Position numbers and translations under genes: made by a program
Notes under the pieces: generated by a model
What the model was told of the DNA's origin: nothing
Database searches by the model: none
The model's input: only the letters and a program-made list of their open reading frames with translations
Shown: positions 1-12,916 of the stretch, piece by piece
How the letters are laid out: every line of letters begins with the position of its first letter
How positions within the stretch are numbered: position 1 is the first letter of the stretch
Source of the DNA: Chitinophaga caeni
Lineage (GTDB): Bacteria; Bacteroidota; Bacteroidia; Chitinophagales; Chitinophagaceae
NCBI RefSeq assembly: GCF_002557795.1
Contig: NZ_CP023777.1
Span: 1,752,001 to 1,816,000, forward strand
Direction: 5' to 3'
Length of the DNA: 64,000 bases

Positions 1-1261
1 ATATATCTTTACAAATACCCTTTTCTATCGGGTACAAACTCCCATTTTGGAGATAATAAAACTCATCATCTTCCTTTACTGGCTTGAAAATATAAAGGTC
101 ATTCCTTAGAGTCGCAATCCCATGTCTTGTTCTATATTTTTCTCCAAAAGGAGTTCCTGTTGCTTCAATTTTGGAAATGATTTTATTGTCATTAAGATTC
201 CAACCTTTTCTTGCATCAAGATTTTGATAATTGATTCTACTATATTGATTTCTATTCGTAGGCAATTCCTTGTCAGCCGATTTATAATATTCGATATAAT
301 TCTGTTCTGTTCTCTCCAAAAAACAAATACAGGTATAAGTACTTTTAGATTTGAAAATCTGAAGTGTTCCAAAATCAATAATTCTTATTGTAGCTCTATT
401 TTCTTCAAAATAGTTCCTTAACGCTCGTCCATTTAGGCTTTTGAAAAAAGTATTCATAGTTATAAAACCAAGAATACCATTCTCTGAAAGATTTTCATAC
501 CCAATCTGAAAGAAAGGAATGTAAAGGTCGGGATTTCCAGAGGTGCATACAGACCAATGTCTTAAATTCTCTTTTACTGTATCTTCTAAGTTTCTCGCAC
601 ACACATAGGGGGGATTTCCAACTATAATTTGAAAACCTCCAAAATTCTCATAATAATCTTCCCATCTAAACAGCAAAGCATCTCCCTTATGTATATTAAA
701 ATGAAACTCTTCTGTATCTTCTCCTTCTGATAGCGCTAATAGGCTTAACAAGAGTTTACTGCGTGTAACCGAGTATTCTTGTATATCTAATCCGAAAATT
801 TGATTTTGAAATATATGTTGGTAGCTATTGCCCGTTCTTCTTCGTAATTCTTGGGAAGCTGTGTACAAGAAGCCTGAACAGCCACACGCAATATCAGCAA
901 TTTTAACAGTTTGAAGTGTATTCGCTTTGCTACGAAATGCCTGAGCCACAATATAACTCCTTATTTCTGCAGGGGTATATATTGCACCATTTACTATTCT
1001 GTCCGAAGGAGAAATAACAAATTCAAATAGTTCAATTAAATCCTCAATAACAAACTTATCTCTTATTCCATTTATTACTTCTATAAATCCTATTAAGTCT
1101 TCGAAATCCGAATCGCTTTCACGAATACAATAGTTTAATAATAGTTTATTATTGATTACCTCTATTTTATTTATGTATAGAAATGCTGAAATAATAAGCC
1201 TGTCCACAAACCAAGGTTTTGCAGGACACTTTTGACTTAAATATTTTGTTGCGTTTTTCAT
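1..1261 (-). CDS. Eco57I-like adenine-N6 DNA methyltransferase (C-terminus outside window)
   Basis: The frame is open from an ATG at 1261 to the window edge, about 420 codons with no stop, so the C-terminal target-recognition part is missing from view. I see the motif order of an amino-methyltransferase of the Eco57I/gamma type: motif X GAIYTP (residues 92-97), motif I DIACGCSGF (123-131, SAM binding) and motif IV NPPY (216-219, catalytic). Further on is the segment LRNYFEENRATIRIIDFG, common in Eco57I-like enzymes. There is no N-terminal nuclease domain ahead of motif X, unlike single-chain type IIG enzymes, so cleavage would have to come from another protein. The HNH gene ends one base upstream (stop at 1263), which supports co-transcription as the last visible gene of the 5232-1 operon. 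Methyltransferase activity is a family inference; the recognition sequence cannot be told. Confidence 0.88.
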   Translation of the reverse strand, partial: MKNATKYLSQKCPAKPWFVDRLIISAFLYINKIEVINNKLLLNYCIRESDSDFEDLIGFIEVINGIRDKFVIEDLIELFEFVISPSDRIVNGAIYTPAEIRSYIVAQAFRSKANTLQTVKIADIACGCSGFLYTASQELRRRTGNSYQHIFQNQIFGLDIQEYSVTRSKLLLSLLALSEGEDTEEFHFNIHKGDALLFRWEDYYENFGGFQIIVGNPPYVCARNLEDTVKENLRHWSVCTSGNPDLYIPFFQIGYENLSENGILGFITMNTFFKSLNGRALRNYFEENRATIRIIDFGTLQIFKSKSTYTCICFLERTEQNYIEYYKSADKELPTNRNQYSRINYQNLDARKGWNLNDNKIISKIEATGTPFGEKYRTRHGIATLRNDLYIFKPVKEDDEFYYLQNGSLYPIEKGICKDI

Positions 1262-1262
1262 T

Positions 1263-1841
1263 CTAAATACTTCCTAATTGTTTTGTATAATTTCTATACT
1301 CTCTATATAACCCCAATACCTTATCTTTTAGAAGATCATTATCTATTGTTTTTAAAACGTTCTCACATTCTTCGATTAGGTTGTCGAGTTCTTCTATTTG
1401 CCATATTATTTCGTGTTGTGGCTTATGAAGCTTCAACTTATAATACATCCATTTACCCAATTGTGTTTGATGGATAATTCTCCCATTAATACATCTCAAA
1501 AACTGCTTATCATATTCGTTATCACAAGGGTCAATAAAACCTTCATCATCTTTATGATGAATTAGTTCGTCTGCTGTCGGCCAATGAGCTCTTTTAGAAT
1601 TATTACAAGACCTGCAAGCATATACAAGATTGGAATAATCTGTATCTTTAATTGTCTTCAGATATTTTTGTGGCACAAAGTGGTCAATTTCAAACCAAAC
1701 AGTTCGCCATACATCAATGTCATTACAATATCCACAACGGCACTTGTAATCTTTCTTCAGTTCTTCTCTGTGGTCAGAATATTTACTAACTACAGTTTTT
1801 ATATCCCTTCTTATTGGAGTTTCTTTTCTAAATGGAATCAT
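1263..1841 (-). CDS. HNH endonuclease
   Basis: A 192-residue protein with a complete HNH/zinc-finger core: C36-x2-C39, D53-H54 in FEIDHFVPQ (catalytic His), N71 in YSNLVYAC, then C76-x2-C79 followed by NNSK (80-83). The two CxxC pairs should bind a structural zinc and D53/H54/N80 should form the beta-beta-alpha-metal nuclease site. The C-terminal half (about 110-192) is helical and has no motif I recognise. It starts one base after the receiver gene ends (1843) and ends one base before the methyltransferase starts (1261). This spacing makes it the natural restriction partner of that enzyme. Whether it cuts unmodified, modified or phage DNA cannot be read from sequence. Confidence 0.88.
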   Translation of the reverse strand: MIPFRKETPIRRDIKTVVSKYSDHREELKKDYKCRCGYCNDIDVWRTVWFEIDHFVPQKYLKTIKDTDYSNLVYACRSCNNSKRAHWPTADELIHHKDDEGFIDPCDNEYDKQFLRCINGRIIHQTQLGKWMYYKLKLHKPQHEIIWQIEELDNLIEECENVLKTIDNDLLKDKVLGLYREYRNYTKQLGSI

Positions 1842-1842
1842 A

Positions 1843-2502
1843 TTACTTCTTCTTATTTAGCCTTTTAAGTTCCTCCAAAATTTCTTTTGTTTCGTTCACA
1901 AACTCATTGAGTTTTGATATAGAATCTCTGTGGACCAAGTTTGCGGGTAAGTCTTTACCTTCAGGATTAAGTTCGTCAAACAAAATATACAATTTCGTTA
2001 GTTCCTCTTCCTCTGGAATATCCAATCCTTGGTTATTTCTCTTTTCTATAAGTTGCTCAATCCTTGCGTTCGTATCCTCAATTTTTCTATAATAATTTGA
2101 AATATTAGACTGTATTTTTGTTTTGAAAATGTCAAGTTCTTCTTGGTCTTTATCATTTTCTACAGTCAAAATATCTTTACTGTAAATGATATGCACATCA
2201 TCTGTATGTCCTATTGCCTGTGTTGGATATGAAGTAAGCATTACAATTGGAAAGTGTGGTCTTATTCTTTTTATTTCCTCGACTATTTTATTCCCATTGA
2301 ACGGCACTTCTGCATTTTCTTCCAATAAATAATCGGTAACAATTGCATCAAGGTTACTTTCCTGCAACTTAGCAAGAATAGACTCAATAGAGGATTCTGA
2401 ATTAACTTCAATTCGCGTTACATCAAAATCATTCTTAAAAGTATGGTAAAAGGTATTTATCCAACCTTTATCCTCGTCTATATATGCAATCTTGTATTTC
2501 AT
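1843..2502 (-). CDS. Response-regulator receiver protein without DNA-binding output domain
   Basis: A 219-residue protein. Residues 1 to about 115 form a receiver domain with all key residues: acidic pocket D9-E10-D11, phospho-acceptor D57 (IVTDYLL), T90 (VMLTSYPT) and K109 (YSK). The remainder (about 120-219) is highly charged and predicted helical or coiled-coil, ending in KRLNKKK, with no helix-turn-helix or enzyme domain that I recognise. Its start overlaps the end of the dual-GHKL kinase gene by four bases (2499-2502, ATGA type), so the two are translationally coupled. The natural reading is that the kinase C-terminal module phosphorylates D57 and that the helical tail carries the signal to a partner protein, perhaps the HNH nuclease or methyltransferase, rather than to a promoter. 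Confidence 0.85.
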   Translation of the reverse strand: MKYKIAYIDEDKGWINTFYHTFKNDFDVTRIEVNSESSIESILAKLQESNLDAIVTDYLLEENAEVPFNGNKIVEEIKRIRPHFPIVMLTSYPTQAIGHTDDVHIIYSKDILTVENDKDQEELDIFKTKIQSNISNYYRKIEDTNARIEQLIEKRNNQGLDIPEEEELTKLYILFDELNPEGKDLPANLVHRDSISKLNEFVNETKEILEELKRLNKKK

Positions 2503-5039
2503 TTCCTTGTTTTGAAAGTTATTTTAAATGTTAATCCGTCATCAATTTTGATAATTGAAATTGACGAATTATTATATTCTTCTATTATTGACTTTACAAT
2601 ATAAAGACCTAATCCTGTTCCAATTTGATTTCCTTTGTTATCTGTTTTCGAGGATTCATTTAGATTAAAAATTTCTTCCGGATTATCTTTATACTTTTTA
2701 TCCAATCCTTTTCCGTTATCAGAAAATACAATCTCAATATCATTCGCTTTTTTCTGCCAACTGATTTCTATTTTCTTCTGCTCCTTGTTATATCCATAGT
2801 GGGCATTAATTGAATTAGATAACAGGTTGTTGAATATGGAATCCATATTTACTTCAAAGGCTCTAACGATATGTTCATTGTCATCTATTTTATTTAATTC
2901 AAGACTGATATTTCTTTGCTCTAAGGCTTTACTCCAATTAGCTTTGAAATTTTCAAAATATTGAGAGAAGTCCAGATTTTTCCTTTCTCGTTTGTCTATT
3001 TTTAATGTACTCAGCGAATAGTCCAACCAATGTTTCAGTTTGACGTCTTCATCACGCATTAAATCAATCATATAGAAAGGATTATCATCTTTATCAAGAT
3101 TTTTTGCTAACTCCTCTTCATTTAAATGATTTTTCAGCTCATCCACTAAATATTTTGTACGTGGAATTAATCTTGCTCTCAAACTTCTGACTTCGTGTGC
3201 AAAAGAAGAAATGATAAGTCCGACACTTGCAAGGCTTCTCAACAATCTTAGTTCTTCGTCTTTCTTCTCGTTATCCTTCTCTAAAATCAATATAGCATCT
3301 GCCATGTTCTCTTCAGTTTCGGAATATTCTTTATTCTCTTCCGAAGACTTATTATCACTATGAGGTTCGGCACTGTCTTTGTTTTCTTCTCTTTCTTCTT
3401 TCTGCTTCCTAATTCTTTCTGCTTCTTCTTTACCTCTTCTCAGTTTCTCTGCTTCCTCGTTCCTCATAGAATGAAGTTGAGAAAGGTTATACATTACGAC
3501 ATTTCTATCCTTCTCAAAAAGACCGATGATTTCAAGTAAAATATTTTTAAAAAGTTCAAACTCGTCATTTTCAATAATCCCTTCACGACCTGACTTGTCC
3601 TGAAAACTTTCGTTATGTAACCTTGATATTTTAATCGTTCCCGCTATTTGATTGGGTCTAATTTTATATCCTCCAAGTCTTTGACCAGCACCACCTGGAC
3701 TTTGCGCCTGTCTTTCTCCTAATCTCAACCAATCATCTCCGTTTTCTCCATAGGGTCTGATGCGAAAATCATCTCTAAATATCTTAATCCCGCCGAACTT
3801 TTTTAACCAAGATTTTCTATTCGCGCTATCAATCTTTTTATATGGATATTTTTTTAGGTCTCCATCTTCCTTATCATCCGAAATAGTATTTTTTAAGAAA
3901 TAAAAAGTAAAACCAAATTTTCCTACTCTATTTAATAAATATTTATCTACTTTTTCAGTCGTTAATTTTTCAATCGGTATATTTAATTCAATCTTCTCCT
4001 TCTTAAAATCTTCAAGTGTATATGGCGAATTTTTCATCATATCAAACTCAAAAACTTCTGCATATCTATTTTCTAAAGCATCAATATCCAGTTCATTTCG
4101 TGAAATTTCTACTTTTATAGTTTTGTCGTCATGTTGATTGTATGTCGCCTTTAACTTATAATCGTAGTCATCATAATAAGCCCTTTTTACGGTTCCAAAT
4201 TCGTCTAAATCACTAAGTAAAAAGAAATCTATTCCAAAATCATTCTGTTCCTCAGGAGGAAGTAACATTTCAAGGTTACCGAATAACTTCCTTAATTTAT
4301 CCTCATTCCAATCATCATTGAGTTCGGTAATTTCAATTACAGTTCCCGATTTAAAATCAACACCATCTAACACTTTTTTGATTTTGGGATATGAAGAAAA
4401 CCTATCTAATAGGTCTTGCTTAAGATTTAAATTCTCTTTACCTGATAGAACTGCTTCAATATCTGAAACAGTAGCCCCTTTTTTATCAAAATCTTTCCAA
4501 TCAACAGTCCACTCGAAACCTACATTATCGCTATTTTGTATTAGCTTGATATTAAAAACTTCTTCTGTACTTTCCTCAATAGGATTGTCTGTATCTATAA
4601 CTTCTAATAGTGTAGGCAGAGAAGTCATATCTGTAAGCATACCTAATCGGTTTAACGCAAAACGTCCAATACCTTTAGCACCAGTTTTAACTCTTCCTGC
4701 TTCTGTGGTATGTTCATATAATTTGTTATCAGTACCTATTGTCATCCACTGGTTTTGAATAATTCTATCATTCATTCCAATTCCATTGTCAATGATATAA
4801 ATACTGCTATTTTCTTTTTCAAACTTTTCTATTTCAACTTCAGTACCATCTTCATTTACGATTGTTTCTTTTTTGATTTTTAAATCAAAAATTAAAATAC
4901 AGTTATTTGCGTCAGCGTCATAAGTGTTTTTAACCAACTCAATGACCGCACCCTCTTCAGTTGAAAAGTTCTCTAACCCAATTAGCTTTGCAGTTCTTGC
5001 AGAAACCTTGAATGGTACTTTTATAGTATTGTTAGTCAT
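2499..5039 (-). CDS. Dual-GHKL ATPase: Hsp90/MutL-like N-terminus plus histidine-kinase-like C-terminus
   Basis: 846 residues with two ATP-binding modules of the GHKL fold. The N-terminal one has ELVKNTYDADA (about 33-43, N box), IIDNGIGM (about 87-94) and TGAKGIGRFALNRLG (about 120-135), as in Hsp90, MutL and MORC proteins. A long middle region follows, then a charged coiled coil (about 525-600). Next is a dimerisation/phospho-acceptor-like helix with H615 in SSFAHEVRS. A C-terminal HATPase_c module has NLLSNSINAH (N box), FSDNGKGL (G1) and GTGLGLYIV (G2, about 804-812). The second half therefore reads as a histidine kinase whose partner is the overlapping receiver gene. GHKL ATPases of the MutL/MORC type are known in bacterial restriction-modification operons; the fusion to a kinase core is what stands out. 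The gene overlaps the XRE gene by eight bases. There is no transmembrane segment, so sensing would be cytoplasmic. Confidence 0.85.
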   Translation of the reverse strand: MTNNTIKVPFKVSARTAKLIGLENFSTEEGAVIELVKNTYDADANNCILIFDLKIKKETIVNEDGTEVEIEKFEKENSSIYIIDNGIGMNDRIIQNQWMTIGTDNKLYEHTTEAGRVKTGAKGIGRFALNRLGMLTDMTSLPTLLEVIDTDNPIEESTEEVFNIKLIQNSDNVGFEWTVDWKDFDKKGATVSDIEAVLSGKENLNLKQDLLDRFSSYPKIKKVLDGVDFKSGTVIEITELNDDWNEDKLRKLFGNLEMLLPPEEQNDFGIDFFLLSDLDEFGTVKRAYYDDYDYKLKATYNQHDDKTIKVEISRNELDIDALENRYAEVFEFDMMKNSPYTLEDFKKEKIELNIPIEKLTTEKVDKYLLNRVGKFGFTFYFLKNTISDDKEDGDLKKYPYKKIDSANRKSWLKKFGGIKIFRDDFRIRPYGENGDDWLRLGERQAQSPGGAGQRLGGYKIRPNQIAGTIKISRLHNESFQDKSGREGIIENDEFELFKNILLEIIGLFEKDRNVVMYNLSQLHSMRNEEAEKLRRGKEEAERIRKQKEEREENKDSAEPHSDNKSSEENKEYSETEENMADAILILEKDNEKKDEELRLLRSLASVGLIISSFAHEVRSLRARLIPRTKYLVDELKNHLNEEELAKNLDKDDNPFYMIDLMRDEDVKLKHWLDYSLSTLKIDKRERKNLDFSQYFENFKANWSKALEQRNISLELNKIDDNEHIVRAFEVNMDSIFNNLLSNSINAHYGYNKEQKKIEISWQKKANDIEIVFSDNGKGLDKKYKDNPEEIFNLNESSKTDNKGNQIGTGLGLYIVKSIIEEYNNSSISIIKIDDGLTFKITFKTRK

Positions 5040-5232
5040 TAAATAGAGATGTTAGTTTTACATTTAGCTTTTCAGCAATCTTAACAAACGTCTTAACAGG
5101 AGGTTGTACCTCATTCGTACACCATCTTGAAATTGTAGCTTCATTTTTGCCCATTTGCTCAGCTAACCATTTACTACTTACATTCTTCTCCGCAAGCACT
5201 ACTTTTAATCTGTTAATTGCTTTTTTACTCAT
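5032..5232 (-). CDS. XRE-family helix-turn-helix regulator
   Basis: A 66-residue single-domain Cro/C1-type protein. The helix-turn-helix is WLAEQMGKNEATISRWCTNE (about 23-42), followed by PPVKTFVKIAEKLNV, the usual end of the five-helix fold. Size and position as first gene of the operon match controller (C) proteins of restriction-modification systems, which time nuclease expression after entry into a new cell; that role is an inference. Its end overlaps the start of the kinase gene by eight bases. The 181-bp divergent intergenic region upstream holds a perfect inverted repeat at 5284-5308 that could be its operator. Confidence 0.9.
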   Translation of the reverse strand: MSKKAINRLKVVLAEKNVSSKWLAEQMGKNEATISRWCTNEVQPPVKTFVKIAEKLNVKLTSLFND

Positions 5233-12395: not shown

Positions 12396-12830
12396 CGTAA
12401 AAAGGTCATCGAAAAGAAAAGCCAATTGCAGGAAGTCGAGGAAAAACTGTTTTCTGTCGAAGAGAAATGGATAAAGAACGAAATCAACAAGGATACCTAT
12501 GGCCGTTGGTATTCGATATACAGCAACGAGATACTGAACCTAAAAGGAGCAATAGAACGGTTGAGCAATGACCAAAGCAAGGCGTTCAGCATCTTGGAAG
12601 ACAACCTAAACCTATTGACGGATATGCGCCATGTGTATACGGTGTCCGATACCCTGCAAAAGAGGGAATTTGTGAACAGGGTGTTCGACAGCAATCTGTA
12701 CTATGAAAACGGCATTTATCGAACACCTACCATGCTCGGTTTATTTTCACATAACCATCTGGAAATGAAAGAAAAGGGATTGCTGATTTACGAAAAAAAA
12801 GAGGGTCTTCTTGATGAAGACCCTCTCAGC
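12385..12830 (+). pseudogene. 3' fragment of a large serine recombinase
   Basis: From about 12385 the plus strand encodes KKVIEKKSQLQEVEEKLFSV, EEKWIKNEI and REFVNRVFDSNLYYENGIYR, the coiled-coil and C-terminal end of Bacteroidota large serine recombinases. The catalytic domain, the recombinase domain and the zinc ribbon are missing. An ORF can be drawn from 12333, but its first 18 codons are antisense to the relaxase fragment. At the other end the frame has lost its own stop and runs into the tRNA-Ser terminator and antisense tRNA to 12950. The fragment thus abuts the chromosomal boundary of the island. Confidence 0.7.
12792..12825 (-). terminator. Rho-independent terminator of tRNA-Ser
   Basis: A perfect 10-bp stem (12801-12810 with 12816-12825, GAGGGTCTTC arms) and 5-base loop. 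On the minus strand it is followed by eight T residues (12793-12800). It lies five bases beyond the tRNA 3' end. Confidence 0.93.
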
Positions 12831-12916
12831 GGAGAAGAAGGGATTCGAACCCTTGAAACCCTTTCGAGTTTACACACTTTCCAGGCGTGCCAGTTCAACC
12901 ACTCCTGCACTTCTCC
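12830..12916 (-). tRNA. tRNA-Ser(GGA)
   Basis: 87 nt with a class II long variable arm. The acceptor stem GGAGAAG (12916-12910) pairs with CTTCTCC (12837-12831), and the discriminator G is at 12830. The T-arm reads GGGTTCGAATCCC. The anticodon loop CTGGAAA carries GGA (12882-12880), reading UCC and UCU codons. The 3' CCA is not encoded. The gene has its own strong promoter and terminator. It marks the right-hand boundary of the accessory island, with the tRNA 3' end facing the island. Confidence 0.96.

What the first reader, a model, noticed from the sequence alone, without database searches (positions are those of the whole stretch)
1..5232. Candidate new defence system: XRE, dual-GHKL kinase, receiver, HNH nuclease and adenine methyltransferase in one operon
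Five genes on the minus strand are packed with overlaps of 8 and 4 bases or gaps of 1 base. Seen directly: complete HNH and NPPY methyltransferase motifs, a full receiver (D9/D11, D57, T90, K109), and a kinase-like protein with H615 and a second GHKL module. Known: GHKL ATPases of the MutL/MORC type and C-proteins occur in restriction-modification operons. Inferred: a phosphorelay (H615 to D57) tells the HNH nuclease or the methyltransferase when to act, for example on sensing phage DNA or damage. I do not know a described system with this exact gene set.
Basis: partly seen in the sequence, partly recalled or inferred. Interest (0 to 1): 0.9.

Follow-up and report, generated by a model that had tools for sequence, protein, structure and literature searches.

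The report
Phosphorelay-controlled MORC/HNH restriction-like operon
A mobile set of bacterial genes couples a MORC-like sensor kinase and its partner switch protein to a DNA-cutting enzyme and a DNA-marking enzyme, probably as a phage-defence system; it looks like an undescribed variant of a little-studied group.

Summary
Five minus-strand genes form a tight operon: XRE, an 846-aa kinase, a receiver, HNH and an Eco57I-type methyltransferase (complete at 618 aa just beyond the window start). Kinase-receiver-HNH occur in this order in 26 of 26 testable loci from Bacteroidota, Proteobacteria and Deinococcota. A predicted adenine-type methyltransferase is adjacent in 25 of 25. The kinase model is a MORC/Hsp90-like ATPase module (11-518) joined to a histidine-kinase core. 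H615 is invariant in 140 of 140 sequences, receiver D57 in 23 of 23. HNH identity tracks the kinase (rho 0.87) far better than the methyltransferase (0.36), whose class switches at least 4 times on a quick tree. So HNH is probably not a sequence-specific enzyme matched to its methylase. Best reading: the kinase senses foreign DNA and phosphorylates the receiver, which licenses HNH; the methyltransferase marks self. No activity is tested. Kinase/receiver pairs beside restriction-modification genes were published in 2021 (HEF_HK/Response_reg_2); this family does not match those Pfam models or any PADLOC kinase model. Verdict: new variant of a known kind.

The parts
5032..5232 (-). XRE/Cro-type regulator, 66 aa
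   Evidence: HTH_3 and HTH_26 over cut-off; homologue upstream of the kinase in a minority of loci
2499..5039 (-). MORC/Hsp90-like ATPase joined to a histidine kinase, 846 aa: ATPase module 11-518, long helices about 492-612, H615, catalytic kinase domain 685-846
   Evidence: Pfam, AlphaFold2 model and structural alignment, profile alignment to HK853, residue conservation
1843..2502 (-). Receiver protein, 219 aa: receiver fold 1-112, then helices; no DNA-binding domain found
   Evidence: alignment A2, model mean pLDDT 85.5, PDB matches to response regulators
1263..1841 (-). HNH nuclease, 192 aa, PtuB-like
   Evidence: PF01844, PADLOC PtuB 3.5e-14, alignment A3
1..1261 (-). Eco57I-type DNA methyltransferase, predicted adenine-N6 (continues beyond the window start; 618 aa in all; class A)
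   Evidence: PF07669 1.6e-30, complete ORF in L002, nearest solved sequences 8cxz/7lni and BseCI

Best explanation
It is a mobile, restriction-like defence module controlled by a His-Asp phosphorelay. The core is kinase, receiver and HNH. The N-terminal MORC-like ATPase of the kinase (inferred to be a DNA clamp) detects foreign or unmarked DNA. ATP-driven closure is passed through the long helices to the kinase half, which autophosphorylates H615 and passes the phosphate to D57 of the receiver. The phosphorylated receiver, which has no recognisable DNA-binding domain, acts on HNH by protein contact and switches on DNA cleavage. The neighbouring methyltransferase marks the host's own DNA and is an exchangeable cassette. 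Where present, the XRE protein times expression. Shown by computation: gene set, order, conservation, predicted folds, intact catalytic residues, repeated change of methyltransferase class. Inferred: defence role, DNA sensing, phosphotransfer, direction of the switch, HNH as its target.
Against: No activity has been measured here or found in print for this family. HNH as the receiver's target rests on adjacency and co-evolution; no complex was modelled. The methyltransferase is not inherited freely: its correlations with the core are weaker but still positive (HNH-MT 0.36, p about 0.004; within class A 0.49, p about 0.002), and the difference between correlations was not itself tested. The classes might methylate the same site, which would undo the swap argument. 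Class A shows no hypervariable target-recognition region. On the HNH tree only 2 of the 5 class changes are forced. MORC and Hsp90 folds are tied for the ATPase module, so DNA clamping is not specifically indicated. G776 of the kinase is Ala in 20 of 140. Defence neighbours are few: each of the 25 PADLOC families listed hit 1 of 104 neighbouring proteins.
Confidence: 0.52

Rival explanations
1. A conventional type II restriction-modification system: HNH is the sequence-specific restriction enzyme, the methyltransferase protects its site, and the kinase/receiver pair only regulates it.
For: Small HNH enzyme next to an Eco57I-family methyltransferase and an XRE gene. PADLOC's best match for the methyltransferase is MTase_II, 5e-65. 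HNH and methyltransferase identities are still positively correlated (0.36; 0.49 within class A).
Against: HNH follows the kinase much more closely (0.87) than the methyltransferase. L068 keeps HNH at 60% identity but has a class B methyltransferase; L069 has a class A methyltransferase at 58% with HNH at only 31%. The receiver shows no DNA-binding domain for transcriptional control.
Confidence: 0.2
2. An abortive-infection or DNA-damage module: the kinase senses phage attack or broken DNA and unleashes a PtuB-like HNH on host DNA or RNA, with the methyltransferase a loosely coupled protector.
For: HNH's best defence models are PtuB (3.5e-14), and NCBIfam gives a sub-cut-off match to a retron HNH family (TIGR02646, 28.8 against 52.15 bits). 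Two-component control suits a triggered response (inference).
Against: A methyltransferase is adjacent in 25 of 25 testable loci, more than expected of a loosely coupled part. No PtuA match for the kinase.
Confidence: 0.18
3. An epigenetic or stress-response regulator, not defence: methyltransferase and kinase adjust gene expression or DNA repair.
For: The nearest solved sequences of the methyltransferase (8cxz, 7lni) are, as recalled, an orphan epigenetic enzyme (CamA). The family is rare and patchy, as accessory regulators can be.
Against: Low G+C, variable tRNA-side region, plasmid copies and interrupted copies fit defence at least as well; HNH is constant in the module.
Confidence: 0.1

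Closest known systems
HEF_HK / Response_reg_2 two-component-like elements (PF19191/PF19192), PMC8011034 (abstract, Introduction, Results and Discussion read; Methods and supplements not)
   Same: N-terminal HATPase_c_3, histidine domain, C-terminal HATPase_c; adjacent receiver; linkage to restriction-modification genes, HNH genes included
   Different: No PF19191 or PF19192 match here. In six HEF_HK loci kinases are 966-1001 aa and the partner proteins 525-575 aa (PF19192 confirmed in the two scanned); in the one upstream gene scanned the methyltransferase is C5 (L057). Ours has a 219-aa receiver, a separate PtuB-like HNH and an N6-type methyltransferase
MORC and paraMORC ATPases of restriction-modification operons, PMC2292703 (parts 1-2 of 4 and search passages read)
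   Same: GHKL plus S5-type module; paraMORC1 noted beside HNH genes
   Different: 'receiver', 'response regulator' and 'two-component' do not occur in its main text; the MORC family motif is absent in 21 of 21 kinases
VcSduA, a Shedu protein with an N-terminal GHKL ATPase, PMC12137116 (passages read)
   Same: GHKL ATPase proposed to control a nuclease in phage defence
   Different: One protein with a PD-(D/E)xK nuclease; no kinase half, receiver or methyltransferase in the passages seen
Septu (PtuA-PtuB) and retron HNH effectors
   Same: HNH of the PtuB kind
   Different: No PtuA match for the kinase; a MORC-kinase and receiver instead
Detocs two-component phage defence (recalled, which required all four terms, found no paper)
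   Same: Kinase/receiver control of an effector
   Different: Recalled effector is a nucleotide-cleaving enzyme; here HNH and a methyltransferase

Membership tests
HEF_HK/Response_reg_2 elements | PF19191 in the kinase | tested here: not met
   0 of 11 kinases scanned, 7 of them of this family and 4 distant relatives. The model does find its own family elsewhere (13 of 390 genomes)
HEF_HK/Response_reg_2 elements | PF19192 in the receiver | tested here: not met
   0 of 11 receivers scanned, 10 of this family and 1 distant; found in L057 and L059 as positive control
HEF_HK/Response_reg_2 elements | HATPase_c_3 + histidine domain + HATPase_c, with adjacent receiver and restriction-modification genes | tested here: met
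Two-component systems | Phospho-acceptor histidine and N/G boxes in the kinase | tested here: met
   one box residue, G776, is Ala in 20 of 140
Two-component systems | Receiver with acidic residue(s), phospho-acceptor Asp, Thr, Lys | tested here: met
   23 of 23; fold
Two-component systems | Phosphotransfer between the two proteins | not testable with these tools
   needs biochemistry
MORC family proper | GhXhhpXXRhl motif in the S5 domain | tested here: not met
   0 of 21 by pattern
MORC/paraMORC-like ATPases | GHKL plus S5/transducer fold | tested here: met
Type II restriction-modification | Restriction enzyme whose site its methyltransferase protects | not testable with these tools
   co-evolution argues against a matched pair
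Septu | PtuA ATPase with PtuB | tested here: not met
   kinase: no PADLOC family at E up to 0.01; two PtuA models hit only the HNH protein, over 142-168 of about 730 positions
Detocs | Its own kinase/receiver proteins and effector (recalled) | not tested
   no reference sequence compared

The most novel reading that the evidence does not exclude
A separate class of restriction in which a MORC-type ATPase is itself a histidine kinase and a His-Asp phosphorelay licenses a non-specific HNH nuclease, while self/non-self specificity lies in an exchangeable methyltransferase whose mark the sensor module can read whatever the enzyme's class.
Probability: 0.3. Interest if true: 0.85.

Novelty: new variant of a known kind. 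Interest (0 to 1): 0.62.

Why it matters
As far as I know, prokaryotic MORC-like ATPases have no established mechanism and phosphorelay control of a restriction nuclease has not been demonstrated (recalled, and not found in the searches listed). This family offers a compact, well-conserved gene set with point mutations (H615, D57, HNH, NPPY) that test each step, and natural methyltransferase exchanges that ask where specificity lies.

Tried and rejected
Membership in HEF_HK/Response_reg_2: rejected at the model level. Membership in MORC proper: motif absent. A nuclease in the C-terminal part of the related Response_reg_2 proteins, which would have been a fused precedent: best solved-sequence match E 0.16, no motif that I recognised. 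Hypervariable target-recognition region in the class A methyltransferase: not seen. Direct repeats marking island ends: nothing over 13 bases between 5 kb of left and 15 kb of right flank. Phage records: 2 partial low-identity matches; viral contigs: 1 locus. Defence neighbours: of 173 neighbouring proteins of at least 180 aa around 20 loci, 104 (mostly the nearer ones) were scanned; 79 PADLOC families matched at 1e-10, each of the 25 listed in one protein, so no strong island claim is made. PADLOC copy is of 2023; DefenseFinder and REBASE were not available. Literature: ten searches; the library lacks most subscription papers and all bioRxiv.

Weak points of the counts: loci were gathered by kinase similarity, and the line between this family (370 bits or more) and distant relatives (252 or less) was drawn after seeing the table. 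L035, whose kinase is in pieces (best 200 bits), is counted in the family because receiver and HNH match. The models were built from 21 of the 26 loci they find; L011, L019, L035, L036 and L082 were not in that set. L010 and L011 are near copies. L009 ends inside the kinase and L019 at HNH, so they were dropped from the linkage and methyltransferase counts respectively. Of the seven class B methyltransferases three were scanned by Pfam (L051, L052, L068); the rest were placed by similarity. The trees cover 21 loci, are of the quick kind and hold long branches (L054, L069). L034's kinase match starts late (query residue 79) beside an IS66 copy; it is probably the one exception at E34/N38, which names no row.
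Full report
What is there. The window starts inside the last gene; the adjoining genome gives a complete 618-aa Eco57I-type methyltransferase. Pfam finds HTH_3, HATPase_c_3 plus HATPase_c, HNH and Eco57I/N6_Mtase; the receiver lies under its cut-off.

Is it a unit? With family models over the ORFs of 46 loci, receiver and HNH lie next to the kinase in the same order in 26 of 26 testable loci; a 27th, L009, ends inside the kinase. In two of the 26 (L035, L082) the kinase gene is interrupted. In 13 of 13 loci with more distant kinase relatives (up to 252 bits) none of the receiver, HNH or methyltransferase models matched, although several of those loci have receivers of other kinds (L055; L017). 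A methyltransferase is adjacent in 25 of 25 (L019 is cut): 15 of class A as in the window and 7 of class B, of which the three scanned carry an M_Eco57I_C domain. Three are of other N6-type families: upstream of the kinase in L035 and L036, and behind an XRE-like gene in L082 (22.8 bits against a cut-off of 20.4). The XRE gene is not constant: BLAST finds homologues of it at seven other loci (L004, L005, L008, L009, L010, L011, L052). Of ten further upstream candidates scanned, one is an HTH protein (L068), one is HU-like (L014) and eight have no match.

What the receiver and HNH are. D9, D57, T90 and K109 are invariant in 23 of 23 receivers. The model is a receiver (1-112) followed by helices and matches response regulators, PorX first. 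HNH keeps D31, C36, H54, N71, C76, N80 and K83 in 24 of 24 rows; its best defence match is PtuB.

Who goes with whom. Over 21 loci the rank correlations of pairwise identity are HK-RR 0.82, HK-HNH 0.87, RR-HNH 0.74, against HK-MT 0.35, RR-MT 0.23 and HNH-MT 0.36. Within class A alone HK-HNH is 0.85 and HNH-MT 0.49. All are positive beyond shuffles, so the methyltransferase is partly co-inherited; the difference between correlations was not tested. On the kinase+receiver tree the class needs 5 changes, 4 forced by starred branches, little fewer than shuffled labels (mean 6.1; 114 of 500 as low for class A, 100 for B). The HNH tree also needs 5, with 2 forced. The simplest reading is that kinase, receiver and HNH are one machine and the methyltransferase is exchangeable, so that HNH is unlikely to need a site matched to the methylase. 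The caveat is that different classes could share a site.

Setting. The operon's G+C is 0.318; flanking 2-kb bins outside -2000 to 6000 lie at 0.36-0.47. A tRNA-Ser at 12829-12916 marks the right edge of a variable region. In five congeners examined (of 60 with a match nearby) the far side holds none of the genes found here, apart from 31-38% matches to the aldo-keto reductase gene in two. In one a serine recombinase overlaps the tRNA (L079). Of 79 genomes of the genus the window's own has a close homologue and one more a distant one (24%). In samples of phylum and class, own genome included, it is 6 of 395 each; one of the former (L055) is a distant relative without HNH. A 72%-identical kinase is named from Acinetobacter, so transfer between phyla is likely.

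Relation to what is known. PMC8011034 reported HEF_HK kinases and Response_reg_2 receivers near restriction-modification genes. Neither model matched (0 of 11 kinases, 0 of 11 receivers), while both find their own families in other loci. Those kinases share the ATPase and S5-like parts with ours at about 25-37%. PMC2292703 described paraMORC ATPases, one family beside HNH genes; its main text has no receivers. PMC12137116 (passages) shows a GHKL ATPase with a nuclease in phage defence. None of the ten searches listed in Tried and rejected returned a paper that I recognised as describing this gene set with a function; most hits were seen as listings only. The finding is therefore a distinct, well-conserved variant of a known but functionally untested kind.

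Noticed in passing
window:5829-7147: Mutator/IS256-type insertion sequence upstream of the operon; six copies at 100% identity in the genome, this one included.
   Followed up: partly
window:7210-8055: RteC-like regulator (PF09357) between operon and tRNA-Ser; as recalled, typical of Bacteroides conjugative transposons.
   Followed up: no
L002:13457-13753 and L002:13972-14328: A 98-aa piece weakly resembling the start of DUF3375 (24.6 bits, cut-off 28.6) and a 118-aa piece of an AAA_21 ATPase: apparently decayed genes left of the operon.
   Followed up: no
P0090, P0099, P0100, P0107 and relatives (13 sequences): Kinases with a similar N-terminal part but only 57-61% identity in the kinase half (SFAHELNNL/SFAHELHNL), an apparent natural domain swap.
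   Followed up: partly
L056-L061 (alignment A8): The Response_reg_2-type partner proteins carry a long C-terminal region with invariant C, CD residues and no sequence match to a solved structure (best E 0.16).
   Followed up: partly
L004:13173-13763: HNH with a divergent first part (50-70%) but a 95% identical C-terminal tail to the window's, a mosaic gene.
   Followed up: no
L079:754-2424: Serine recombinase overlapping the same tRNA-Ser in a congener, suggesting an integration hot spot.
   Followed up: no
L053 and L062 (genome G249): One genome carries this system and, about 3 Mb away, a weak HEF_HK-type kinase locus (26.3 bits, cut-off 24.1).
   Followed up: no
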